Below, one piece after another: positions 43,818-56,196 of a DNA stretch of 64,000 bases. The notes under the pieces were generated by a model. It worked only from the letters and a program-made list of their open reading frames with translations, was not told the origin of the DNA and made no database searches. How positions within the stretch are numbered: position 1 is the stretch's first letter; each line of letters begins with the position of its first letter. The DNA lies in the NCBI RefSeq assembly GCF_029624125.1, contig NZ_JARSBN010000002.1:124001-188000 (forward strand), read 5' to 3'. The position numbers were made by a program, and so were the translations under genes. The stretch comes from Winogradskyella marincola (lineage in GTDB: Bacteria > Bacteroidota > Bacteroidia > Flavobacteriales > Flavobacteriaceae).

Positions 43818-45635
43818 ATGAGAAAAAAGATTACCCCTTTTGCATTACTAATTATGGCTGTTTTTCAGCTTAATGCACAAGAAGTTACACAACAATTAGA
43901 TTCGGTTACTTTAACTGGTACACGTATCGATTTACCTTTTAAAGAAAACTCAAGAACGATAAACATCATTACAGCAGATGCTATTAAAAAAAGTGCCGCT
44001 GTAAATCTTGCAGATCTATTGCAGCAAGTGGCTGGTGTAGACATCAGAAGACGTGGCACAGGTGGCAGCCAAGCCGATCTTTACATAAGAGGTGGTGGTT
44101 TTGACCAAACACTTCTACTAATAGATGGTATAAAAATGGATGATGTACAAACTGGTCATCATAGCATGAATGCTGCTTTACCAATAGAAGTTATTGAGCG
44201 TATAGAAATTATCAAAGGTCCTGCCGCCAGAGTTTTTGGTCAGAATGCTTTTAACGGAGCTATAAATATTGTGACTAAGAAAAACCTGAAAAATTCAACA
44301 TCTGCAACTATTGAAACTGGATCATTTGGACAACTTAATGGTAATGTTACTGCTGGTGTAGATTTAGAAAACTCATCGCATATTGTTCATGTTGGCAGAG
44401 TGACTTCTGAAGGTTACCGAATTAACACCGATTACGACAATGCCAATTACTACCTAAAAAGTACGTTCAATAAAAATGCACAAGCTATTGAAATGACAGC
44501 TACATTTCTTGAACGCAAATTTGGTGCACAAAACTTCTACACAACGAATCCTACGTTTAACGAGTACGAAGAAACGCAGAATAGCTTAATTGCATTTGGT
44601 ACAACGTTTAGAACTGAAAAATTTAAAATTCAACCAAGAGTTTACTGGAAACGTAATCAAGATATCTTTCTATTACGACGAGATGAGCCAGATTTTTATA
44701 GAAACATGCACATTTCTGATAAAATTGGAGCGGAAACAAACGCCTCTTACACTTCAGAATTAGGTATTACTGGTTTTGGTGTAGATCTTTCTAAGATTTA
44801 CCTAAGAAGTAACAACTTAGGAGACCGTAACCGTTTTATGGCTAATGCATTCTTAGAGCATCGCTTTAGTTTGTTAGACAACAAACTAGACATTACACCT
44901 GGTGTTGCTTTAACGTATTTTTCCGATTTTAAATTTCATGCATTTCCTGGTTTAGATGTTGGTTATGACATTACCAACAACTTCAAGGTTTATGGTAACA
45001 TTGGTTATACTTACCGAGTACCAACCTACACCGACTTATATTATAACGATCCTGTAACTACAGGAAATGAAGATCTAGAACCAGAAGAAGCGTTTGCACA
45101 AGAGCTTGGTTTAAAATACATCTCACCAAAACTTACAGCAAGTATCGCTGTATTTAACAGAGATGCAGATAACCTAATCGATTATGTAAGAACATCTGTA
45201 ACCGAAGATGTATTTACTGCACAGAACATCACAGAAGTTAACACCAAAGGTTTAGAGTTTGATGCTGCATACAACTTTAATATTAGCAACTACAAACAAA
45301 CTTTAGCGTTTGGATACTCGTACTTAGATGATAATATTTCAGATCAAAATGAAGAATTATCACGCTATTCACTTAATACGTTGAAGCACCAATATATTAC
45401 GCGATTAAGCACACAGTTATTTAAAAACGTAAGTCAAAACATTGTTTACAAATATGCCGAACGCACAACAGGACAAACCTATAATGTTTGGGATGCCTCA
45501 ATTGCTTTCAGAATTAATCAAGCGGAATTTACAGTAACAGCAAGCAACATTTTTGATGCTGACTACATTGAATCTGGCTTTACACCAATGCCTCCAAGTA
45601 ACGTGTTATTTGGTTTACGATATACGTTTAAATAG
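43818..45635 (+). CDS. TonB-dependent receptor, BtuB/siderophore-type
   Basis: 605 aa from the ATG at 43818, which begins a proper signal peptide (MRKKITPFALLIMAVFQLNAQ). An in-frame ATG at 43758 would add 20 non-signal residues and sits in the promoter region. A plug domain (about 30-150; RGGGFDQTLLLIDGIKMDD, then EIIKGPAARVFGQNAFNGAINIVTKK) is followed by a 22-strand-type barrel ending in an aromatic residue and a basic tail (FGLRYTFK). No carboxypeptidase-like extension. The small size and plug resemble vitamin B12 and iron-chelate receptors. Regulation by the divergent MocR-type protein hints at a vitamin or amino-containing ligand; not proven. Confidence 0.9.
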   Translation: MRKKITPFALLIMAVFQLNAQEVTQQLDSVTLTGTRIDLPFKENSRTINIITADAIKKSAAVNLADLLQQVAGVDIRRRGTGGSQADLYIRGGGFDQTLLLIDGIKMDDVQTGHHSMNAALPIEVIERIEIIKGPAARVFGQNAFNGAINIVTKKNLKNSTSATIETGSFGQLNGNVTAGVDLENSSHIVHVGRVTSEGYRINTDYDNANYYLKSTFNKNAQAIEMTATFLERKFGAQNFYTTNPTFNEYEETQNSLIAFGTTFRTEKFKIQPRVYWKRNQDIFLLRRDEPDFYRNMHISDKIGAETNASYTSELGITGFGVDLSKIYLRSNNLGDRNRFMANAFLEHRFSLLDNKLDITPGVALTYFSDFKFHAFPGLDVGYDITNNFKVYGNIGYTYRVPTYTDLYYNDPVTTGNEDLEPEEAFAQELGLKYISPKLTASIAVFNRDADNLIDYVRTSVTEDVFTAQNITEVNTKGLEFDAAYNFNISNYKQTLAFGYSYLDDNISDQNEELSRYSLNTLKHQYITRLSTQLFKNVSQNIVYKYAERTTGQTYNVWDASIAFRINQAEFTVTASNIFDADYIESGFTPMPPSNVLFGLRYTFK

Positions 45636-45659
45636 ATAGAAAACAACATATCATACTAT

Positions 45660-45690
45660 AAATCCTGTCCTAACCGACAGGATTTTTTTG
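45660..45690 (+). terminator. Terminator after the TonB receptor gene
   Basis: AAATCCTGTC pairs with GACAGGATTT around a CTAACC loop, followed by seven T. Confidence 0.87.
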
Positions 45691-45738
45691 TTGCTATTGT
45701 AACAAAATTCAAATAAGTGCTACATATTATATGTAAGC

Positions 45739-45765
45739 TTATCGCTACATCCGGAATAGCGATAA
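45739..45765. promoter_or_regulatory. Inverted repeat upstream of the pspA-like gene
   Basis: TTATCGCTA (45739-45747) and TAGCGATAA (45757-45765) are perfect 9-bp arms with a 9-base spacer, about 107 bp before the gene start. No T-run follows, so an operator or a dispersed repeat is more likely than a terminator. Confidence 0.4.
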
Positions 45766-45871
45766 AATTCAACCATCACATTCTTATCAGGGCTTTAATC
45801 CTTTAAAAATGTATCCTTTAGTTTAGAATTTATTGTAAGGTATTTCAATTAAAAGTACTAGATTTAACGCT

Positions 45872-46570
45872 ATGAACATCTTTAGAAAGCTATTCAATTT
45901 TTTTCAGGCTAAAGCTAATACCATGATTGATAATCAGTATGAGCTTGAAGACACCATTGAAGAACAACTGAATCGCTTAAAAGAAGAACTTTCTTATACT
46001 ACCGAGCACCTAAATAAAGTAAAAGCGCTAGCAATTCGTGTAAAAAATGACAATAACGAATATGCCACTAAAGCAAAAAAAAGCGAAAATGAAGCTGTTG
46101 CTATTTTAAAAAAAGTACAGCTCAATCAAATTGATGTTTATGAAGGAGATCGCTTAGCCAGAGAAGCTTTGATAAAAAAAGAAGCATTATTAGCAAAAGC
46201 GAAAGCTACAGCAGCAGAACGCGATAAATTAGATTATAAGGTTGAATTGTTAAAAGGTAATGTAGCAATAATTCAATCAAACATTTCAGACTATGAAAAA
46301 GAGCTCGATACTTTAAAAGCTGAAATTAAACTAATCGAAGCTGAACAAAACATAAACAAACAAATGACACATCTTAATGCTCAAAGTATTGATGATAGAT
46401 TGAAATTTTTAAAAGAAAAAACACAAGAATTTCAAGACTTAAAAGAGCAACCAGATGATTATATAAACTTAGACAACGATATAGATTTCACACTAGATGA
46501 TACGGTATCTAAAGCTAATGAAGATCTAAAAAAATTAAAAGAAGAATTAGGCATAAAAAACAGTAATTAA
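45872..46570 (+). CDS. PspA/IM30-family membrane-stress protein
   Basis: 232 aa, nearly all predicted helix and coiled coil, the expected length for PspA/Vipp1. It starts MNIFRKLFNFFQAKANTMID with an amphipathic N-terminal helix, then has the long antiparallel hairpin (about 25-155) rich in Lys, Glu and Ala. PspA-family proteins form ESCRT-III-like spirals and rods on damaged membranes and help to keep the proton gradient. Here there is no PspF, PspB or PspC nearby; instead YqiJ- and YqiK-like genes and a large ATPase gene follow on the same strand, starting 54 bp later. First gene of the cluster. Confidence 0.88.
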   Translation: MNIFRKLFNFFQAKANTMIDNQYELEDTIEEQLNRLKEELSYTTEHLNKVKALAIRVKNDNNEYATKAKKSENEAVAILKKVQLNQIDVYEGDRLAREALIKKEALLAKAKATAAERDKLDYKVELLKGNVAIIQSNISDYEKELDTLKAEIKLIEAEQNINKQMTHLNAQSIDDRLKFLKEKTQEFQDLKEQPDDYINLDNDIDFTLDDTVSKANEDLKKLKEELGIKNSN

Positions 46571-46624
46571 TCAGTTATTTTACCAAACGCGCTCAAAATG
46601 AGCTCACTTTAAAACCATAAACCA

Positions 46625-47350
46625 TTGGAACAGTATTTAGACATCGTATTCTCACAAGTTAACATTACGCTCAGCATTTTGTTAATCCTCCTGATTTTAT
46701 ATTGGCTCGTTACCATGTTTAGTGGTATCGATTTCGACTTAGATGTTGATGTAGATATCGATGTTGACATAGATGCTGACGTAGATATGGAAGTCGAAAG
46801 CGGTCTGGAAAGTGGCAACATAGATTTTCAAGATGTTAGCAATGTAGAAGTAGACCGTCAGCATGTTGTAAACAGAAGAACTCGTAATTTAAAATGGTGG
46901 CAGGTTGTATTAATCTATTTCAACTTTGTTGGCTTACCATTTATGTTCACCTTTACTTTCTGGATTTTTAATTGGTGGCTCATATCTGTTATTACAACGA
47001 CGCTAACCAACAGTTACGATACCAGTTTTGGATATGCTATTGTTTTACTGGCAATACTACCATCATTGTTTCTTACAAAAATCGTAACCGTTCCTTTTAA
47101 ATCCTTCTTTAAAAATTTAAATAAAGACGGTGATAAAGCTATTGACTTCATAGGTTTAGAAGCAAAACTTCTATCTACTATTTCAGGAGAAAAAATGGGC
47201 AATGCCGAAGTTATAGTCGATGGAAACGTAATGACGATCTATGTAAAATCATTAGACACATCAGAACTAAAATTTCATGAAAAAGCACTAATAATTAAAC
47301 AATCCGAAGACAAAAACTACTATTTAGTTGCAAAACCAAACCTTAATTAA
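46625..47350 (+). CDS. YqiJ-like OB-fold membrane protein (NfeD-related)
   Basis: 241 aa. The start is TTG: a stop codon lies 15 bp upstream in frame and no ATG occurs between. A membrane segment (about 14-32) is followed by a strictly alternating Asp/hydrophobic stretch (36-58). Then come a region with two more membrane segments (about 98-165, with WWQVVLIYFNFVGLPF and a later YAIVLLAILPSLFL) and a C-terminal OB-like beta domain (about 180-241; GLEAKLLSTISGEKMGNAEV). This layout is that of YqiJ, which is found with the flotillin YqiK in E. coli. It likely anchors or caps the SPFH assembly encoded 24 bp downstream. Confidence 0.8.
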   Translation: MEQYLDIVFSQVNITLSILLILLILYWLVTMFSGIDFDLDVDVDIDVDIDADVDMEVESGLESGNIDFQDVSNVEVDRQHVVNRRTRNLKWWQVVLIYFNFVGLPFMFTFTFWIFNWWLISVITTTLTNSYDTSFGYAIVLLAILPSLFLTKIVTVPFKSFFKNLNKDGDKAIDFIGLEAKLLSTISGEKMGNAEVIVDGNVMTIYVKSLDTSELKFHEKALIIKQSEDKNYYLVAKPNLN

Positions 47351-47374
47351 CATTTAAAAACCAAATAAAAAACC

Positions 47375-49447
47375 ATGGAAGGAATCTTACCTCTTATTTT
47401 AACCGGACTGGGAATTATTTTATTCCTAATCATTGTGTATTTCGCAATCATTGCGATGTTTTACAAAAAAGTACCACAAGGCCAAGCACTTGTCAGAACA
47501 GGTTTTGGTGGCACAAAAGTAGCCACAGACAAAGGCTTGTACGTGGTTCCTGTATTTCATCGTGTAGAGATTATGGATGTCTCTGTAAAGAAAATTCAAA
47601 TAGAACGTTTGGGCACAGAAGGCCTTATCTGTAAAGACAATATGCGTGCAGATATCAAAGTTGCCTTTTTCGTTCGTGTAAATAATGAAGTTGAATTTAT
47701 TAAGAAAGTAGCACAAACTATAGGTGTAGATCGTGCCTCTCGCATAGAAACTTTAGAAGATCTTTTTGAAGCGAAATTCTCTGAAGCCTTAAAAACAGTT
47801 GGTAAGAAGTTTGAATTCATCCAGTTATATGAAGCGCGTCGCGAATTTAGAGACGAAATAGTAGACATTATTGGCACAGATCTTAATGGCTACACGCTAG
47901 AAGATTGCGCTATTGATTATCTAGAACAAACAGCAGTTTCATTTTTAAAACCAGATAACATCTTAGATGCAGAAGGTATTAAGAAGATTACTGATCTTAC
48001 TGCTGAGCAAAATATTAAAGCCAATTTAATAAAGCGTGATGAAGAAAAAATCATTCGCAAACAAGATGTAGAAGCACAAGAAGCTATCCTAGAATTGGAC
48101 AAGCAACTGGCTGAAAAAGAAGAACAACAAAAACGCGAAATTGCTAACATAAAAGCTCGTGAAGAAGCTGCAACTTTAAAAGTAGCAGAAGAAGAGCGTT
48201 TAAAATCTGAAACTGCACGTATAGCAACCGAAGAAAAAGTAAAAGTTGCTGAAGAAAACATGCAACGTCAAATTATTGTTGCAGAGAAAAATAAGCAACG
48301 TACAGATGCTATAGAAAGTGAACGTGTAGAGAAAGACCGTTTATTAGAAAGAACCGAAAAAGAACGTATTGTGACGTTGGCTCAAATTGAAAAAGAGAAG
48401 GTTGTTGAAGTAGAGAAAAAGAACATTCAAGATGTTATTAGAGATCGTGTTACGCTAGAAAAAGGTGTGGTTGAAGAGCAGGAAAACATGAAAGACATCG
48501 AAGCTTTCAAAACTGCTGACAGAGCAAAACAAGTGGCAATAACTAACGCTGAAGCGGCTGCACAAGAAGACTTAATAAAAACGATTAAATCTGCTGAAGC
48601 ACAGAAAGAAGCTGCAAAACAAAAAGCTGAAGAATTAAACATAGAAGCACAAGCGCAAAAAGAAGCGAGCGAAAAAGAAGCTGAAGCTCGTAAAACACTT
48701 GCTGAAGCAAAAGCAAAAGAGGAAGCTACAATTGGTATGTCTGAAGCACAAGTGATGCATGCAAAAGCTGAGGCTAGCGAAAGACAAGGTGTTGTTGATG
48801 CATTAATCATTCAGAAAAAAGCAGAAGCAGAAGCGAGTGGAATTTCTGCTAAAGCGGAAGCTAAACGATTAGAAGGATTAGCAGAAGCTCAAGTTATTAA
48901 AGAGAAAGCTATGGCAGATGCTTCAGGAATTGAAGAAAAAGCTGAAGCAATGAAGAAGTTAGATGGTGTAGGTAAAGAGCACGAAGAATTCAAACTTAAA
49001 CTTGATAAAGAATTACAAGTTGACTTAGCTAAAATCAATATTCAGAAAGAAATTGCTGATGCACAAGCTAAAGTAATTGGTGAAGCGTTAAGAGCTGCTA
49101 AAATTGATATTGTTGGTGGTGAGACTATGTTCTTTGAGCAAATTATAGGACAAATAACAAAAGCCAAGGGTTATGATCGTTTGGTACAACACTCAGAAAC
49201 TGTAAGCGAAGTAAAAGACGCTATACTAAGTAGCGATGATGTAAAAGGAAACCTACTCGATAAAGTAAAATCCTTTGTAGATAAATATGGTATAAGTTCA
49301 GAAGATATTAAAAACTTAACTATTGCCAATTTACTGAGCAATCTACAAGATAAATCTGATGATAAAAGTGAACAAACCATGTTAAGTAATCTATTCAACC
49401 TTGCAAAAGGCATGGGATTATCTAACAAAAAGATGAATGATTTATAA
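47375..49447 (+). CDS. YqiK/flotillin-like SPFH protein
   Basis: 690 aa. One N-terminal membrane segment (about 7-29) is followed by an SPFH/band 7 domain (about 35-220; VPQGQALVRTGFGG, then DNMRADIKVAFFVRV). A very long Ala/Glu/Lys coiled coil follows (about 230-560) with many AEA-type repeats, then a compact C-terminal region of about 100 residues ending GMGLSNKKMNDL. Flotillins oligomerise into membrane cages or microdomains. This protein, longer than typical FloT, fits YqiK. Together with the PspA- and YqiJ-like neighbours it suggests a membrane-organising complex. Confidence 0.9.
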   Translation: MEGILPLILTGLGIILFLIIVYFAIIAMFYKKVPQGQALVRTGFGGTKVATDKGLYVVPVFHRVEIMDVSVKKIQIERLGTEGLICKDNMRADIKVAFFVRVNNEVEFIKKVAQTIGVDRASRIETLEDLFEAKFSEALKTVGKKFEFIQLYEARREFRDEIVDIIGTDLNGYTLEDCAIDYLEQTAVSFLKPDNILDAEGIKKITDLTAEQNIKANLIKRDEEKIIRKQDVEAQEAILELDKQLAEKEEQQKREIANIKAREEAATLKVAEEERLKSETARIATEEKVKVAEENMQRQIIVAEKNKQRTDAIESERVEKDRLLERTEKERIVTLAQIEKEKVVEVEKKNIQDVIRDRVTLEKGVVEEQENMKDIEAFKTADRAKQVAITNAEAAAQEDLIKTIKSAEAQKEAAKQKAEELNIEAQAQKEASEKEAEARKTLAEAKAKEEATIGMSEAQVMHAKAEASERQGVVDALIIQKKAEAEASGISAKAEAKRLEGLAEAQVIKEKAMADASGIEEKAEAMKKLDGVGKEHEEFKLKLDKELQVDLAKINIQKEIADAQAKVIGEALRAAKIDIVGGETMFFEQIIGQITKAKGYDRLVQHSETVSEVKDAILSSDDVKGNLLDKVKSFVDKYGISSEDIKNLTIANLLSNLQDKSDDKSEQTMLSNLFNLAKGMGLSNKKMNDL

Positions 49448-49503
49448 AAATAAAGCGAGCAGGAAAATGTAAGGTTAAAAATTAATTCAAATGCTTTTAC
49501 TAT

Positions 49504-50088
49504 ATGAACTTTGAAAAATACATCATTGCTAATGGTTTAGAAGAAAAAAAATTGAATGATGCTGTTCAAGAGTTAGCTAATTTATATGCGGACACAGGGT
49601 TCACTAAAGAAGTGAGAATTTTTAAAAGTAAAATAGCAAGCAATGTATTTGTAATTAATTTTTCTAGAGATACAGATTTTGAAAGATTTAAATACTTTGT
49701 CAATTTTCTATTTTACCCTTTTGACTATGAGTCTAATCATGAAGTTTATGGATATTGGAACTTAACTCAAGATGATGATATCAATAAAGAACTCTATGGT
49801 AAAAGAATTCAACTTTATATTTCAGCAAATGACGAAGATGGAGATAATGTATATGGAATTCCTCAAAATTGGGATGAGACCATAAAACTTTGCTTTGCTA
49901 TTGGGCATGCATATGTTCCAATTGGAAGAAAGGAATTCGATTTTTTTGAAAAGTCACTTTCAAAATCTGATTTTTTTGAATTAAAACCAATTTATGGTAT
50001 TATAAATAAATCAGAGAATAAAAAAACAGGTTGTTCTTTTATTTTCTTGATTCTAATCTCTATTACAGCAGCATATATGTTGTTATAA
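49504..50088 (+). CDS. Unrecognised C-terminally membrane-anchored protein
   Basis: 194 aa, family not recognised. The soluble N-terminal 170 residues are rich in Phe, Tyr, Asp and Lys and of mixed alpha/beta look. After a short Lys-rich linker a single hydrophobic segment (about 176-194, GCSFIFLILISITAAYMLL) ends the chain, which is a tail-anchor layout. It lies 56 bp after the flotillin gene and 123 bp before the ATPase gene on the same strand. It could be an accessory subunit or an unrelated insertion into the cluster. Confidence in the gene is good; function is unknown. Confidence 0.75.
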   Translation: MNFEKYIIANGLEEKKLNDAVQELANLYADTGFTKEVRIFKSKIASNVFVINFSRDTDFERFKYFVNFLFYPFDYESNHEVYGYWNLTQDDDINKELYGKRIQLYISANDEDGDNVYGIPQNWDETIKLCFAIGHAYVPIGRKEFDFFEKSLSKSDFFELKPIYGIINKSENKKTGCSFIFLILISITAAYMLL

Positions 50089-50211
50089 AGTAAAATTGAG
50101 AAATTATCCATATGCTTTTTCAAAAAATGATGTTCTCTAAAACTTTTTCAATATAGAGGATGAGGGACAATAACATCTAAATCTCGACTACCGAGTAAAC
50201 TTTTATAAAAA

Positions 50212-53200
50212 ATGGCAGACAACCAAACTGATGATAATATAGCTTTAGATTCTGGAACTTACGAAATCATTCAGAGTCGTTTACTAAAGCAAAAAAACGA
50301 TTTACAAAACCGTTTACACCTCCTTAACGAAGCGCGTAAAACCGTTTTTGGATCCTTAGAAACACAGCTTATTGCTAACGATCGCATCAATACGGAGAAC
50401 AACTGTATTGCCAGAGATATCGTTTCTATAGGAAACCAAAGCTTATTTGGCTATAACGTGCATTTTGGACTGCGTACATCTATTTCGTTGAGTGATGTTT
50501 TTAGCGTTTATCAGTTTCAGCGACACGATGATGCTTTCAGGTTTGAAGAAAGTCCAACTGGATTGCAAATTATTGATGATCCTGTGTTTAAAAACGACTT
50601 CGAAAATCTATATAAATATTATCGAAATACCATTTTTTCAAAGTTTGCCATTATTGGTAATTATCTCCACATGGTATTTCAGCTAAGCGAATCAGTTTCG
50701 GATATAAAAACATTCAAATGGCTTATTAATGGTAATACTTTAGAATATATAGATAACCGTAGTGAGCACGAGTATAAGTATCCTAAACAATACGATTTTA
50801 TCTGGAATGAAGCTGGCCGAGATCATCAACGTAATGGAAAACATGCACATGTTTCTATATTGGATAAGGTTTTTGTTGAAACTATTGGTGGAGATTTAAC
50901 TATTAAAGTCGAAGATAACACAGACGATGGCAAAGGTATTTATAGTGAAGATGTTGAGCATAAAGACCAAACCTTAGATGATGGTCAGTACCGTTATGCC
51001 GATTTGGGAAATCTTATTGTTTTAGAAATAAAACCATTTCAAGAACAACCACGATATTTTGTATACAACCATAAACTTAAAGTTGTTGAAAAAGTGGATT
51101 CCATAGCACAATCTGCTGTTTTGTTACCAGACGATCAAGGTATTATTTTCCCGAGTGGATACTATCTGCAAACTGGTGAATACAATGTGTTTTCAAACAC
51201 AACGTATCAATTAAAATTTCAACAAAAAATAACCTCTCCCAACGGAGAAGATCACCTGTATATTTACTACGATCCTAAGGAGGCTGTTTATGTCTTAATG
51301 TCGTACAACGTCATTGATCAGGAAGTTAAAACACCTATTATCTGTAATGGGTTTACAATTTTAGATAATGGTGAACTGTGTTATTTCCGCACTGAAGAAG
51401 AACAAACCAAGCATCACATGATGCAAATATGGCAAACACCATATTTAAAAGGCGATATTATGCCTTCAGAGCATCAAGACACTTTACTTTATAAAATTGG
51501 GAATAAGGATATTGTTAAGGCCATGGCCGAAACTAACGAGCTTATTACACTACTTAATAAGGAAGATAGCTATGATGGGTTGTATGATGATATTGCGCGA
51601 GTATCCAAAGACATTTTAGATGCTTATTATTGGATTTCTAAAGAAGAGACCCAACAGCTCAATATACCTTTGGCTGAAATCAACAAAGCCTCTAATGCTG
51701 CTATAGATGAATTTGAAAAGGTAAAGCAATTACGCAAACAAGCTGAGCAAGAAACCCTTTCCATTTCTAAGAAATCTGAAGAGCTTTTCAGTAAAATTAA
51801 AAGCACGTCTTTTAAATCTATTAACGATTTTGTAAATCTGCTAACACAATTGCGTTCCATAAGAGGTGAGGCTATTGGATTGTACGAAGTTCGTTATGTC
51901 GATCATGATTTCATTAAAGGTATTGAAGCTCAAATTTTGGAGCAAAACGACACCATTTCTAGGCGTGCAACTACATTTCTTTTAGATGATAAAGCTTTAG
52001 AACCGTATCACAACGCCATTAACGAAAAGCAAAAAACACTAGAAGAGTTAAAAAAGGTCATCGAGATAAAAGCTTTAGAGGAAGAGGTCAATAAAATTGC
52101 AGAAGATTTAGAACTGCTTATCGATATTGTATCAAATCTCGATATTGAAGATACCTCTCACTCCACTAAAATCATTGAAAATATCTCTTTGATTTTTGCG
52201 ACAATCAATCAGGTTAAAGCGGCAATAAAAAACAAATTAAAAGCTGTTGGCAAAAAAGAAGCACAAGCCGATTTTACTGCACAACTCAAACTTATTGATC
52301 AAAGTATTATCAACTATATTGATATTGCCAACACACCTGAAAAATGTGATGAATTTCTCACAAAGGTTTCTATTCAACTTGAAGAATTAGAAGGCAAATT
52401 TTCAGATTTTGAAGAATACATTACTCAAATTATAGAAAAACGAGAAGAGGTTTACGCAGCTTTTGATAATCGCAAATCTAGCCTTGTAGAAGCTCGAAAT
52501 AAAAAAATGATTGCCTTACAAAATGCTGCGCAACGCATTATAAATGGCGCACAAAAAAAGGCACAATCCTTAGAGGATATTGCTGCAATAAATGGCTATT
52601 TTGCCAGTGACCTTATGATAAATAAGGTCCGTGACATCATCGGTCAATTAAAAGAGCTCGGCGATGTTGGTAAATCTGAAGCCATAGAAACAGCGCTTAA
52701 AGTCGCGCGTGAAGATGCTTTACGAAAACTGAAAGACAAAAACGAACTCTACGAGGATGGAGACAACGTTATAAAGTTAGGAAAGCACAAGTTTGGCGTT
52801 AATAAGCAACAGCTAGATGTTACCATAGTTTTTAAAAATAATGAGCTGTTCTACCATCTTACAGGTACCGATTTTTATCAGAAACTAAATCATGAGGTAC
52901 TTAACAACTCAAAAGACATTTGGAATCAAGAATTAATTTCTGAAGATCAACAAGTCTATAGAGCGGCTTATCTTGCCTACAAGATGTTCTCTACTGGTGA
53001 TAAAACAGCACTAAATAAGCTGAATGATGCTGAGTTACTAAGCCATGTACAAGATTACATTAGTGGTGATTATTCAGGTGGTTATGTTAAAGGTGTTCAT
53101 GATTATGATGCCACGCAATTTCTAAAGGTTCTATTACAAAAACATCAGGAATTAGATTTATTAATCTATCCACCAAATGTAAGAGCTGAAGCACAATTTT

Positions 53201-55080
53201 TCTGGAATAATCTTTCTGAAGAAAACCTAAAAGCATACAACCACGACTTAAAAAGTGCTGGTGAGGTTTTGGCTGTTTTTCCCAACAGCAAGGAATATGA
53301 TTTTATCATTGATGAGCTAGCGGAAGACATTCAAACTTCAAGAAAAATTGAGGCTAATAGTGCCAAAACTATTGCCGAATATTTATTTAACGAACTCAAA
53401 GACAATGACGCATTTACAGTTAGTAGCGAAGCTATAAAACTAAAAGATGCTTTTGAAAAGGAATTAAAAGCACAAAAAGCTACCGAAAAATTCAAACAAC
53501 GTCTTAACGATAGTGCTACCCAAAAAGATCGTATAGAATTGGTAAAGCATTGGGTTTCGGCATTTGCAAAAGCAAATGAAAACACATTGGTTCCTTATGT
53601 AAATGAATGTGTGGCTTGTATTTTGCATAAGAACGATAGCGCTTCTAATACTGCTGTTGCAGAAACTGAAATCAAAGATTTAAAAGGCGTTCATCCTAGT
53701 ATTGTTGATGGTACCTTTCAATTTAGCTATCATAAATTCTCTGAAGAACTAGAGCATTTTAATAGTGTAAAAGTTCCTGCGTTTTCAGCCTTTAAATCGG
53801 CTAAACATGAGGTTATAGAACAACTCAAGGAACAGTTGAGATTAGATGAATTTAAACCTCGCGTATTAAGTTCTTTCGTTAGAAACAAACTTATAAATCA
53901 GGTGTATTTCCCACTTATTGGAGATAATTTAGCAAAGCAATTAGGTACTGTTGGCGATACCAAACGTATAGACCGAATGGGTTTATTGCTACTGATTTCA
54001 CCACCTGGTTATGGTAAAACCACATTAATGGAATATGTAGCCAACAGACTTGGCTTAATATTCATGAAAATTAATGGTCCTGCCATAGGCCACGAAGTTA
54101 CCTCTGTAGATCCTGAAGCTGCAAATAATTCTGCTGCCAGAGAAGAGCTTAAAAAATTAAACTTAGCTTTTGAAATGGGTGATAATGTGATGTTGTATTT
54201 AGATGATATTCAACATTGCAATCCTGAATTTTTACAGAAGTTTATCAGTCTATCCGATGGTACACGTAAGATTGAAGGTGTTTACCAAGGCAAACCTAAA
54301 ACTTACGATTTAAGAAGTAAGAAGTTTTGTGTTATCATGGCTGGAAATCCATATACCGAAAGTGGTGAAAAATTCCAGATACCAGACATGCTTGCTAACC
54401 GTGCAGACATATACAATTTAGGTGACATTATTGGAGATACAGCCCATTTGTTTGAGTTAAGTCTTATTGAAAATGCCTTAACAAGCAATCCTGTTTTACA
54501 ACAATTAAGCACCAAATATTTTGATGATGTGTATACCTTAATTGACCGTGTACAACATAACACAGCAGACGCAGAGCTTAAAGGTAATCATAGTAACCAA
54601 GAGGTTGCAGATTATGTTTCTGTGATTGAAAAAGTCATTAAAATAAGAAACACTGTTCTTAAGGTTAACGAGACCTATATTGCCAGTGCAGGTATGGAAG
54701 ACAGCTATCGTACAGAGCCTAGTTTTAAGCTACAAGGATCGTACAGAGACATGAACAAATTAGTTGCCAAAGTAGTGCCTATAATGGATGATAAGGAATT
54801 GCAAACCTTAGTATTATCGCATTACGAAAACGAATCGCAAACTTTAACTAGCGCTGCGGAAGCCAACCTTTTAAAGTATAAAGAATTAAGCAATTCGTTA
54901 ACCGAAGAAGAGCTACAGCGTTGGGAAGACATTAAAGTGATTTTTGCCAAAAACAATAAGCTGAATAGTCTAGGTGGACAAAACCAAATGTCGCAAATTA
55001 TAGCACAGATGGCTGACTTTACTGATAATATTGAAGGTATAAAAGAAATACTGAGACAAGGATTTTTAGACAAAAAATAA
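50212..55080 (+). CDS. Giant AAA ATPase of the 'DNA repair ATPase' type, linked to the PspA/flotillin cluster
   Basis: 1622 aa. The N-terminal 450 residues are beta-rich and resemble the DUF3686/'DNA repair ATPase' N-terminus; the repair label is inherited and untested. A helical middle part (about 450-1230) has several coiled coils. A single AAA module follows: Walker A PPGYGKTT at 1264-1271, Walker B MLYLDD at 1327-1332, and a sensor-1 like MAGNPY at 1376-1381. The module is MoxR/dynein-like in its NP block. No nuclease, protease or membrane segment was seen. Last gene of the cluster 45872-55080; it probably uses ATP to remodel the PspA or SPFH assemblies or a client, by analogy with ESCRT-III/Vps4. 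That is inference. Confidence 0.82.
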   Translation: MADNQTDDNIALDSGTYEIIQSRLLKQKNDLQNRLHLLNEARKTVFGSLETQLIANDRINTENNCIARDIVSIGNQSLFGYNVHFGLRTSISLSDVFSVYQFQRHDDAFRFEESPTGLQIIDDPVFKNDFENLYKYYRNTIFSKFAIIGNYLHMVFQLSESVSDIKTFKWLINGNTLEYIDNRSEHEYKYPKQYDFIWNEAGRDHQRNGKHAHVSILDKVFVETIGGDLTIKVEDNTDDGKGIYSEDVEHKDQTLDDGQYRYADLGNLIVLEIKPFQEQPRYFVYNHKLKVVEKVDSIAQSAVLLPDDQGIIFPSGYYLQTGEYNVFSNTTYQLKFQQKITSPNGEDHLYIYYDPKEAVYVLMSYNVIDQEVKTPIICNGFTILDNGELCYFRTEEEQTKHHMMQIWQTPYLKGDIMPSEHQDTLLYKIGNKDIVKAMAETNELITLLNKEDSYDGLYDDIARVSKDILDAYYWISKEETQQLNIPLAEINKASNAAIDEFEKVKQLRKQAEQETLSISKKSEELFSKIKSTSFKSINDFVNLLTQLRSIRGEAIGLYEVRYVDHDFIKGIEAQILEQNDTISRRATTFLLDDKALEPYHNAINEKQKTLEELKKVIEIKALEEEVNKIAEDLELLIDIVSNLDIEDTSHSTKIIENISLIFATINQVKAAIKNKLKAVGKKEAQADFTAQLKLIDQSIINYIDIANTPEKCDEFLTKVSIQLEELEGKFSDFEEYITQIIEKREEVYAAFDNRKSSLVEARNKKMIALQNAAQRIINGAQKKAQSLEDIAAINGYFASDLMINKVRDIIGQLKELGDVGKSEAIETALKVAREDALRKLKDKNELYEDGDNVIKLGKHKFGVNKQQLDVTIVFKNNELFYHLTGTDFYQKLNHEVLNNSKDIWNQELISEDQQVYRAAYLAYKMFSTGDKTALNKLNDAELLSHVQDYISGDYSGGYVKGVHDYDATQFLKVLLQKHQELDLLIYPPNVRAEAQFFWNNLSEENLKAYNHDLKSAGEVLAVFPNSKEYDFIIDELAEDIQTSRKIEANSAKTIAEYLFNELKDNDAFTVSSEAIKLKDAFEKELKAQKATEKFKQRLNDSATQKDRIELVKHWVSAFAKANENTLVPYVNECVACILHKNDSASNTAVAETEIKDLKGVHPSIVDGTFQFSYHKFSEELEHFNSVKVPAFSAFKSAKHEVIEQLKEQLRLDEFKPRVLSSFVRNKLINQVYFPLIGDNLAKQLGTVGDTKRIDRMGLLLLISPPGYGKTTLMEYVANRLGLIFMKINGPAIGHEVTSVDPEAANNSAAREELKKLNLAFEMGDNVMLYLDDIQHCNPEFLQKFISLSDGTRKIEGVYQGKPKTYDLRSKKFCVIMAGNPYTESGEKFQIPDMLANRADIYNLGDIIGDTAHLFELSLIENALTSNPVLQQLSTKYFDDVYTLIDRVQHNTADAELKGNHSNQEVADYVSVIEKVIKIRNTVLKVNETYIASAGMEDSYRTEPSFKLQGSYRDMNKLVAKVVPIMDDKELQTLVLSHYENESQTLTSAAEANLLKYKELSNSLTEEELQRWEDIKVIFAKNNKLNSLGGQNQMSQIIAQMADFTDNIEGIKEILRQGFLDKK

Positions 55081-55126
55081 AATTTGATAATAAACACAAT
55101 AAGGTTATCAGAGAATTATGATAGTC

Positions 55127-55156
55127 TGTCATTCTGAACTCGTTTCAGAATCTAAA
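55127..55156 (+). repeat. BIME-like repeat, unit 1
   Basis: A 30-base unit starting TGTCATTCTGAACT, itself partly palindromic. The reverse complement of 55174-55203 matches it at 25 of 30 bases. Confidence 0.55.
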
Positions 55157-55173
55157 TGAACTCATTTTATTTT

Positions 55174-55203
55174 TTTAGAATCTGAAATAAATTCAGATTG
55201 ACA
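55174..55203 (-). repeat. BIME-like repeat, unit 2 (inverted)
   Basis: Inverted partner of the unit at 55127-55156, 17 bases away. As a pair they can form a long hairpin after the ATPase gene and may act as its 3' end. Confidence 0.5.
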
Positions 55204-55307
55204 AAATCTTAACTTTTTAGACAGTTTTATCTTTTCACCATAGGATTTACTAATCAGTAATAAGTTATTTTTTATCATACAATTTAAACCAATTGGTAAC
55301 GTTTTCT

Positions 55308-55315
55308 TAACTTTG
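55308..55315 (+). promoter_or_regulatory. Candidate -7 box (TAACTTTG) of the cupin-like gene
   Basis: TAACTTTG matches TAnnTTTG and lies 20 bp before the TTG start at 55336, so the leader would be very short. This supports the TTG start. Confidence 0.4.
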
Positions 55316-55335
55316 GCATTCTAAAGTTTTAACTG

Positions 55336-56196
55336 TTGCAATTAGACCTTCAAGACATACCTCGCGTAAAGACAATTACTAAAGAAGATTTTATTAAAAA
55401 TTACTTCAAGCCACAAAAACCTGTGGTTATTGAGCGTTTTATTGAAGATTGGCCAGCTTATTCTAAATGGAGTTTAGACTACATGAAAGAGGTTGCAGGC
55501 GATAAAACGGTTCCGCTTTACGACGATAGACCTGTAGATTACAAAGACGGTTTTAACGAAGCTCATGCTAAAATGAAAATGAGCGATTATGTAGATCTTC
55601 TAAAACGCGAGCCTACAAAATTCAGGATTTTTCTTTGGAATATTTTGAAAGAAGTACCTCAACTTCAAAAAGACTTTAGTTATCCAGACTTTGGATTAAG
55701 GTTAATGAAAGGCTTACCAATGCTATTTTTTGGTGGAAGAGATTCGTACACCTTTATGCATTATGATATTGATTTAGCTAATATATTCCACTTTCATTTT
55801 GAAGGTAAAAAGCAAGTGATTCTTTTCGATCAAAAACAGAATAAGTATTTATATAAAGTACCGCATTCTTTAATAACAAGAGAAGATATTGACTTTGCTA
55901 ATCCAGATTTTGAAAAATGGCCTGCATTAAAGCATGCCAAAGGTTGGGTCTGTAACCTTAATCATGGAGAGGTATTATACATGCCAGAAGGCTACTGGCA
56001 TTATATGCGCTACTTAACACCTGGTTTTTCTATGAGTTTACGTGCCATTGCGCGTAATCCTAAAAACTTAGGAAAGGCACTTTATAATATCTTTTTAATG
56101 CGTAATTACGACAACCTTATGCGTCGTATAAAAGGCCAAAAATGGATTGACTGGAAAAATGAAAAGGCAATAACGAACACAAAGCCTTACGTTTAA
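55336..56196 (+). CDS. Cupin-like (JmjC/FIH-type) putative Fe(II)/2-oxoglutarate oxygenase
   Basis: 286 aa, TTG start; upstream there is no in-frame ATG that would fit. The cupin_8/JmjC-like fold begins with PVVIERFIEDWPAYSKWSLDY. The metal triad is visible as H142-x-D144 (FMHYDID) and H222 (EGYWHYM). The iron and the co-substrate are inferred from the family. Relatives hydroxylate protein or tRNA targets; the substrate here is unknown. It stands alone, after a BIME-like repeat and before a small beta-barrel gene with its own promoter. Confidence 0.85.
   Translation: MQLDLQDIPRVKTITKEDFIKNYFKPQKPVVIERFIEDWPAYSKWSLDYMKEVAGDKTVPLYDDRPVDYKDGFNEAHAKMKMSDYVDLLKREPTKFRIFLWNILKEVPQLQKDFSYPDFGLRLMKGLPMLFFGGRDSYTFMHYDIDLANIFHFHFEGKKQVILFDQKQNKYLYKVPHSLITREDIDFANPDFEKWPALKHAKGWVCNLNHGEVLYMPEGYWHYMRYLTPGFSMSLRAIARNPKNLGKALYNIFLMRNYDNLMRRIKGQKWIDWKNEKAITNTKPYV

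What the first reader, a model, noticed from the sequence alone, without database searches (positions are those of the whole stretch)
45872..55080. PspA-YqiJ-YqiK cluster with a giant AAA ATPase and an orphan tail-anchored protein
Five co-directional genes join an ESCRT-III-like membrane protein (PspA family), an OB-fold membrane partner (YqiJ), a flotillin (YqiK), an unknown tail-anchored protein and a 1622-aa ATPase. PspA and YqiJ/YqiK are each known, and links of PspA to flotillins and AAA ATPases have been noted in comparative genomics. A full system in which a dedicated giant ATPase might disassemble PspA or SPFH coats, like Vps4 on ESCRT-III, has not to my knowledge been characterised in flavobacteria. 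It could serve envelope stress, phage tolerance or T9SS membrane load.
Basis: partly seen in the sequence, partly recalled or inferred. Interest (0 to 1): 0.72.

Follow-up and report, generated by a model that had tools for sequence, protein, structure and literature searches.

The report
Flotillin-PspA membrane operon with giant ATPase
This is a stripped-down, lineage-specific version of an already described bacterial membrane-stress operon, in which a raft-type (flotillin) scaffold travels with a giant ATP-driven motor and a membrane-repair protein; here the usual partner of that repair protein and the usual regulator are missing.

Summary
The genes are there as described: PspA, YqiJ-like protein, SPFH/flotillin, a 194-aa tail-anchored protein and a 1622-aa ATPase (DUF3686 + DUF7902 + AAA+). 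The operon type is in print: Ravi et al. 2024 (PMC11237479) describe CesT/Tir-PspA + band-7/flotillin + YqiJ + a propeller/coiled-coil AAA+ ATPase. Of 90 loci with at least 6 kb upstream, the ATPase has SPFH beside it in 87 and YqiJ in 85; PspA in 53 of 67 Bacteroidota and 0 of 23 others. So the ATPase looks primarily like the scaffold's motor rather than a dedicated PspA-disassembling Vps4; its modelled AAA+ module leans towards MoxR-type proteins, though other comparisons are less clear. The window departs from the canonical operon: the CesT chaperone and head-to-head XRE regulator, found in 53 of 53 PspA-bearing loci, are gone, and PspA has lost 34 of 78 conserved positions yet remains under purifying selection. 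A sister genome has the same junction. The tail-anchored protein is not a core part: no relative lies in any of the 107 loci, its relatives sit elsewhere.

The parts
45660..45685 (+). terminator-like stem-loop with T tail between the upstream TonB-receptor-like gene and the operon
   Evidence: 10 pairs, 4 G-C, T-rich tail; 7 such sites found vs 5.1 expected in shuffles, so weak on its own
45872..46570 (+). PspA/IM30-family (ESCRT-III-like) protein, 232 aa, fast-evolving but intact
   Evidence: 61.8 bits to PF04012; profile of window + 9 relatives matches Vipp1/PspA structures, E 5e-23
46625..47350 (+). YqiJ-like protein, 3 TM-like windows + C-terminal domain, acidic D-x-D stretch
   Evidence: (PF21001 in 4 of 12 aligned members)
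47375..49447 (+). SPFH/flotillin-like scaffold, N-terminal TM + band-7 + long charged/coiled region, 690 aa
   Evidence: PF01145 in 4 of 12 aligned members; weak match to QmcA
49504..50088 (+). 194-aa tail-anchored protein: local insert, judged not a core member
   Evidence: no relative in any of 107 ATPase loci; relatives at unrelated loci; model beta-alpha-beta-beta-alpha-beta + tail helix 177-193
50212..55080 (+). giant AAA+ ATPase, 1622 aa
50299..51630 (+). DUF3686 region of the ATPase (residues 30-473); presumably the beta-propeller part named by Ravi et al. (not modelled here)
51991..52242 (+). DUF7902 region of the ATPase (residues 594-677)
53986..54363 (+). AAA+ core (residues 1259-1384): Walker A SPPGYGKTT, Walker B YLDDIQH, sensor 1 MAGNPYT; the arginine-finger candidate in PDMLANRAD follows at residues 1391-1399 (motif roles recalled)
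   Evidence: (conserved over 97 sequences)

Best explanation
A derived member of the published CesT/Tir-PspA + flotillin + YqiJ + AAA+ envelope-stress operon. Core: SPFH and YqiJ build a ring or cage on the inner membrane, and the giant ATPase docks on it from the cytosol through its N-terminal propeller and coiled coil and uses a AAA+ ring, probably of MoxR type, to remodel, load or eject what the scaffold holds. PspA is an accessory membrane-repair polymer recruited to the same site. In other Bacteroidota a CesT/Tir-like chaperone keeps PspA in hand and an XRE regulator gates the operon; this lineage lost both, and its PspA has drifted to work without the chaperone. Shown: gene content, order, co-occurrence, the two losses, PspA acceleration with purifying selection. 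Leaning: MoxR-like fold. Inferred: cage formation, docking, direction of ATP-driven action, stress role, chaperone-PspA binding, repressor role.
For: SPFH beside the ATPase in 87 of 90 loci and YqiJ in 85 of 90, in Bacteroidota, Planctomycetota, Verrucomicrobiota/Kiritimatiellota, Desulfobacterota and Clostridia. In 199 genomes of the same family, strong SPFH hits occur in 18, all among the 19 with the ATPase. All 53 PspA loci of the tally have CesT and an opposite-strand XRE gene upstream; of the 18 family genomes with PspA over cut-off, the 17 other than the window's all have CesT beside PspA. No CesT in the window genome, neither CesT nor the XRE in the window by profile (one XRE-like hit of 13 bits), only distant XRE paralogues (26% identity) elsewhere in the genome. 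A close sister (ATPase 96.2% identical over 746 residues) has the same TonB receptor-PspA-YqiJ junction without CesT/XRE. PspA terminal branch 1.47, longest of 52 and 15 times the median, against 1.8-2.9 times the median for YqiJ, SPFH and ATPase; 34 of 78 conserved positions lost vs median 3.7% in 52 others; pairwise dN/dS 0.19. AAA+ model by VIA-align: CbbQ2 Z 15.1 (251 aligned, 4.2 A), NorQ 14.4, next dynein 12.7 and ClpA 12.5.
Against: PspA tracks the ATPase strongly inside the family (16 of 18 PspA genomes), so a direct ATPase-PspA link is not excluded. The MoxR call is not firm: Foldseek by E-value puts RuvB, ClpB/ClpA and MCM first and CbbQ2 at rank 18; Pfam AAA (31.3 bits) scores above AAA_5 (27.6); the best PDB sequence hits are Rix7/VAT/p97 around Walker A. 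PspA can diverge without losing CesT: L099 keeps CesT, yet has lost 27% of conserved positions and has the largest mean tree distance (window second of 52). Between window and sister, PspA dN (0.112) is like that of the TonB receptor (0.119). CesT was not sought genome-wide in the sister. No complex was modelled; no expression or interaction data.
Confidence: 0.48

Rival explanations
1. Vps4-like system: the giant ATPase pulls apart PspA polymers, as Vps4 does ESCRT-III, with SPFH as platform.
For: PspA is an ESCRT-III relative (family assignment; link to ESCRT-III from PMC11188069 passages); PspA and the ATPase co-occur in 16 of 18 PspA genomes of the family; Pfam AAA scores above AAA_5 and classic AAA proteins are the best PDB sequence hits; Ravi et al. 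discuss AAA+ partners of PspA in this light.
Against: SPFH-ATPase operons without adjacent PspA: 12 of 65 Bacteroidota, 22 of 22 others; G019 and G122 lack PspA altogether; the PspA acceleration is not mirrored in the ATPase; no MIT domain in the Pfam scan; MoxR proteins fill the first ten VIA-align rows.
Confidence: 0.17
2. Flotillin-type quality control: the SPFH/YqiJ cage holds unfolded or damaged membrane proteins and the ATPase extracts or refolds them; PspA is only a bystander patching leaks.
For: SPFH-ATPase pairing is the near-invariant (87 of 90); FloA with NfeD stabilises unfolded proteins in S. aureus (PMC13086221 passage; PMC11222466 listing); HflKC works with the AAA+ protease FtsH (PMC13220708 listing).
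Against: No protease domain found in the ATPase (Pfam); no substrate evidence; the strong co-occurrence of PspA in Bacteroidota is then unexplained.
Confidence: 0.25
3. The tail-anchored protein is a functional stand-in for the lost CesT chaperone, anchoring PspA to the membrane.
For: It carries a C-terminal TM-like segment and sits in an operon that lacks CesT.
Against: Not CesT-like by profile comparison (probability 0.2%); predicted topology differs from the recalled CesT fold; relatives occur at unrelated loci, several in genomes without the ATPase (G006, G039, G107, G162, G193); the same junction holds other unrelated inserts. Whether the sister genome has it could not be read (contig break).
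Confidence: 0.06
4. Decaying locus: loss of CesT and regulator started a slide of the whole operon to a pseudogene state.
For: PspA is strongly diverged; congener G157 lacks ATPase, PspA, CesT and SPFH, and G716 has no DNA match to the region (a weak test).
Against: All ORFs intact; dN/dS 0.054 and 0.065 for the ATPase and YqiJ parts and 0.19 for PspA between window and sister.
Confidence: 0.04

Closest known systems
CesT/Tir-PspA + band-7/flotillin + AAA+ (propeller/coiled coil) + YqiJ operon of Ravi et al. 2024 (PMC11237479; type example ANH61662/ANH61663)
   Same: Same PspA, SPFH, YqiJ and large AAA+ gene classes, adjacent and co-directional
   Different: Window lacks CesT and the head-to-head XRE regulator, has a strongly diverged PspA and a 194-aa insert before the ATPase
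Abbreviated YqiJ-band-7-AAA+ operons (same paper)
   Same: YqiJ-SPFH-ATPase core without adjacent PspA: 20 of 23 non-Bacteroidota loci have SPFH and YqiJ, none PspA
   Different: Window keeps PspA
B. subtilis pspA-ydjGHI (PMC8581546, abstract and outline seen; PMC11237479 section 19)
   Same: SPFH protein needed to place PspA on the membrane
   Different: No giant ATPase or YqiJ named; zinc-ribbon and TPM-domain partners instead
P. aeruginosa bac operon (PMC10948618 and PMC13086221, passages)
   Same: CesT-like BacA and PspA-like BacB at the locus that also holds a short NfeD and the SPFH protein PaFlo3
   Different: Six-gene operon; the word ATPase occurs 0 times in the text of PMC10948618; biofilm phenotype of a bacA mutant
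SPFH-NfeD complex QmcA-YbbJ; HflKC-FtsH (passages, listing)
   Same: SPFH cage with an NfeD partner, or with an AAA+ partner
   Different: Sequence match of our SPFH to QmcA is weak (E 0.0097; 0.029); the motor differs from FtsH in domain content
Vps4-ESCRT-III
   Same: AAA+ ATPase in one operon with an ESCRT-III-superfamily protein
   Different: See rival 1

Membership tests
Ravi et al. CesT/Tir-PspA-flotillin-AAA+-YqiJ operon | CesT/Tir-PspA dyad | tested here: not met
   PspA present; no CesT in window or own genome. CesT is beside PspA in all 53 PspA loci of the tally; 7 of 7 scanned CesT proteins match PF22550
Ravi et al. [quoted passage not shown]
   the window's own protein hits no Pfam family, 4 of 12 aligned members (relatives 50-85% identical to it) hit PF01145; coiled coil judged from sequence only
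Ravi et al. [quoted passage not shown]
   DUF3686 + AAA met; propeller and coiled coil taken from the paper, N-terminal half not modelled here
Ravi et al. CesT/Tir-PspA-flotillin-AAA+-YqiJ operon | 3-TM YqiJ/YuaF protein | tested here: met
   3 TM-like windows; PF21001 in 4 of 12 aligned members; profile hit to YuaF only E 0.68
PspA/IM30 family | PF04012 over the curated cut-off | tested here: met
   61.8 bits vs 33.9
Vps4-type AAA+ | N-terminal MIT domain | tested here: not met
   no MIT in Pfam scan of the whole ATPase at E 0.1; sequence level only
Vps4-type AAA+ | Vps4-like AAA+ fold | tested here: inconclusive
   Vps4 4d80 at Foldseek rank 31 (TMt 0.36); not among the 50 rows shown
MoxR-type AAA+ | fold of the AAA+ module | tested here: inconclusive
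   CbbQ2/NorQ/CbbQ fill VIA-align ranks 1-10, Z 13.6-15.1 over 230-251 residues, next dynein 12.7; but Foldseek ranks RuvB, Clp and MCM first, CbbQ2 18th
MoxR-type AAA+ | helix-2 insert and VWA partner (recalled) | tested here: inconclusive
   no strand pair between beta-2 and alpha-2 in the model; no VWA protein searched for
CesT/Tir-like chaperone (for the 194-aa protein) | profile similarity to the operon's CesT proteins | tested here: not met
   hhalign probability 0.2%

The most novel reading that the evidence does not exclude
A natural 'chaperone-free PspA': loss of a PspA-specific CesT/Tir chaperone and its regulator in one flavobacterial lineage freed PspA surface positions from constraint, so the 29 positions conserved in CesT-bearing PspAs but changed in both window and sister would include the chaperone-PspA interface, while the SPFH-YqiJ-motor core stayed unchanged. 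CesT would then be the on/off switch of PspA polymers in Bacteroidota.
Probability: 0.2. Interest if true: 0.6.

Novelty: new variant of a known kind. Interest (0 to 1): 0.36.

Why it matters
It turns a list of operon neighbours into a testable layout: a near-invariant SPFH-YqiJ-motor core across phyla, an optional CesT-PspA module in Bacteroidota with its own XRE regulator, and a natural loss of chaperone and regulator. That points experiments at SPFH rather than PspA as the motor's main partner and offers positions to test for a PspA-chaperone contact.

Tried and rejected
PADLOC scan: weak hits only, best E 0.0027 to Cas1b. Pfam/NCBIfam on the window's own YqiJ and SPFH proteins: no hit, met by scanning relatives. 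YqiJ profile against PDB: weak YuaF hit, E 0.68, ranked second. SPFH profile against PDB: QmcA, E 0.029. The 194-aa protein: no Pfam family over cut-off for the window's copy, scattered weak hits among 10 members (best 5.4e-4), best Foldseek E 0.35, best VIA-align Z 7.5, no phage or plasmid match; considered as CesT substitute and set aside. Vps4 does not appear in the 50 rows shown. Bacteroidetes-type promoter pattern (recalled consensus): no match in 45500-55500; sigma-70-like sites 31 against 37 in shuffles. Greedy ORF calling hid some genes under antisense ORFs, so counts rest on the six-frame repeat. Loci with under 6 kb upstream (17 of 107) were dropped before counting. Phyla of named loci were assigned by me from record titles. 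Of 96 ATPase homologues listed, 53 were given to the structure job.

Literature searches without result: 'DUF3686', 'DNA repair ATPase' + flotillin, MoxR + SPFH + PspA; PspA + flotillin + Flavobacterium gave one unrelated paper. Figures and supplements of PMC11237479 were not seen, so the XRE neighbour may be shown there; in its main text 'XRE', 'S24', 'MoxR' and 'DUF3686' occur 0 times (12 of 17 passages shown).
Full report
OBSERVATION. The five ORFs exist, intact and co-directional, at the stated coordinates. PspA passes PF04012 (61.8 bits); the ATPase is DUF3686 (605 bits) + DUF7902 + AAA. The window's YqiJ and SPFH proteins hit no Pfam model, but aligned relatives do (Band_7 in 4 of 12; YqiJ_N in 4 of 12). 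TM-like windows: 3 in YqiJ, 1 in SPFH, 1 C-terminal in the 194-aa protein. A terminator-like stem lies between the TonB-receptor-like gene and PspA.

PRIOR KNOWLEDGE. [quoted passage not shown] So the association is published; I found no bench work on it.

CONSERVATION. Six-frame profile search and tally: of 107 loci, 90 have at least 6 kb upstream. SPFH is on the same strand beside the ATPase in 87 of 90, YqiJ in 85 of 90. PspA: 53 of 67 Bacteroidota, 0 of 23 others (Planctomycetota 9, Verrucomicrobiota/Kiritimatiellota 8, Desulfobacterota 3, Clostridia 3). Each of the 53 has CesT and an XRE-type gene on the opposite strand upstream; the XRE profile was seeded from 48 head-to-head neighbours of CesT, so that count is not fully independent. 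Seven of seven scanned CesT proteins match PF22550 CesT_Tir_1 (best 188 bits); one XRE protein has HTH_3 and a Peptidase_S24-like part below cut-off.

GENOME LEVEL. In 199 genomes of the family: ATPase 19; SPFH 28, of which 18 strong and all inside the 19, ten weak (E about 1e-7, probably other SPFH proteins); PspA over cut-off 18, of which 16 with ATPase, four further sub-threshold hits. Fisher p 1e-24 and 9e-19, ignoring shared ancestry. ATPase without PspA: G019, G122 and the fragmented G079. PspA without ATPase: G016 and G180, where CesT-PspA sits in a different operon whose neighbours look like the DUF4178/DUF350 type of Ravi et al. (those neighbours named by eye); G016 there lacks the XRE gene. 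Thus CesT-PspA is a portable pair, and SPFH-YqiJ-ATPase a separate core. In a draw from the whole phylum the ATPase is sparse (10 of 395).

WHAT IS ODD ABOUT THE WINDOW. CesT is absent from the window and genome; the XRE orthologue too (only 26%-identity paralogues). The window PspA is 29-41% identical to the others compared, has the longest terminal branch of 52 (1.47, median 0.10) while SPFH, YqiJ and ATPase branches are 1.8-2.9 times their medians, and departs at 34 of 78 positions conserved in at least 85% of 52 others (29 shared with the sister; median of others 3.7%, maximum 27% in L099, which keeps CesT and has the largest mean distance). In the sister genome G773 (source of L128, MAG SAT96) the TonB receptor-PspA-YqiJ junction is the same and also without CesT/XRE; CesT was not sought in the rest of that genome. 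dN/dS: PspA 0.19, ATPase part 0.054, YqiJ part 0.065, TonB receptor 0.079, whose dN (0.119) is like that of PspA (0.112). So PspA is faster than its operon neighbours but still selected. One congener (G157) lacks ATPase, PspA, CesT and SPFH; the other (G716) has no DNA match to the region, a weak test.

THE TAIL-ANCHORED PROTEIN. Neither it nor its family profile matches anything in the 107 loci, 95 of which show SPFH upstream of the ATPase. Relatives occur in 9 other genomes of 397 (26-41% identity), as single genes beside unrelated neighbours and with varied TM attachments. Model (mean pLDDT 83.4): beta-alpha-beta-beta-alpha-beta core plus tail helix; no convincing structural match; not CesT-like. 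The SPFH-ATPase junction is at least 400 bp in 20 of 65 Bacteroidota loci and carries assorted genes; of nine inserts scanned, two match DUF559, one GIY-YIG, two Y1_Tnp, one putAbiC, three only weak families. The 194-aa gene is best read as one more insert.

THE MOTOR. Over 97 sequences the motifs SPPGYGKTT, Y-x-DDIQH, MAGNPYTE, PDML-x-NR-x-D and QGSYR are nearly invariant. The model of residues 840-1622 (mean pLDDT 87.3) matches MoxR-type CbbQ2 and NorQ best by VIA-align (Z 15.1-13.6), then dynein and ClpA (12.7, 12.5). Foldseek by E-value ranks RuvB, Clp and MCM chains first and CbbQ2 18th; Pfam AAA is above AAA_5; weak p97/Rix7 hits cover Walker A. I therefore call it MoxR-leaning, not MoxR.

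MECHANISM. I commit to a scaffold-motor reading: SPFH/YqiJ cage, ATPase as its remodeller, PspA as recruited repair polymer, CesT as PspA's chaperone or lock, XRE as regulator, the last two lost here. Support for SPFH-PspA coupling: YdjI is needed for PspA at the membrane in B. subtilis (PMC8581546, abstract). SPFH-NfeD cages are known from QmcA-YbbJ (PMC13086221, passage). A CesT-like protein, a PspA, a short NfeD and an SPFH share the P. aeruginosa bac locus (PMC10948618, PMC13086221, passages). Other papers: passages only of PMC9239133, PMC11188069, PMC2636767 and further passages of PMC11237479; listings only for the rest.

Noticed in passing
L154:2211-2963 and upstream of CesT in the PspA-bearing Bacteroidota loci (e.g. 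L033, L036, L062): XRE-type regulator with S24-like part, on the opposite strand next to CesT in the canonical operon; likely the operon's regulator. The word XRE does not occur in the main text of PMC11237479.
   Followed up: partly
SPFH-ATPase junction in L030, L033, L037, L050, L065, L071, L106 (inserts scanned) and L038, L088, L124, L135 (by eye): Recurrent insertion spot carrying DUF559, GIY-YIG, Y1_Tnp, putAbiC and small TM genes.
   Followed up: partly
window 46730-46786 (YqiJ-like gene, residues 36-54): Acidic alternating D-x-D run; three of its aspartates are invariant in 12 aligned sequences across phyla, perhaps metal or lipid-headgroup contact.
   Followed up: no
L147, L148, L149, L150, L152, L153: Sporadic family of the 194-aa protein: one shared domain joined to an N-terminal TM, a C-terminal TM bundle or a tail anchor at unrelated loci.
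   Followed up: partly
L110:9968-14815: ATPase gene of Dysgonomonas capnocytophagoides is split into two ORFs (499 and 1047 aa).
   Followed up: no
window 55081-55335: Gap after the ATPase holds an inverted-repeat-like TCATTCTGAAC...GTTTCAGAATC element, seen by eye.
   Followed up: no
L156/L158 (G003:C33): A second, lone CesT-like gene near a CesT-PspA pair, with an XRE gene between.
   Followed up: no
L099: PspA of this Sphingobacterium locus is also strongly diverged although CesT is present.
   Followed up: no
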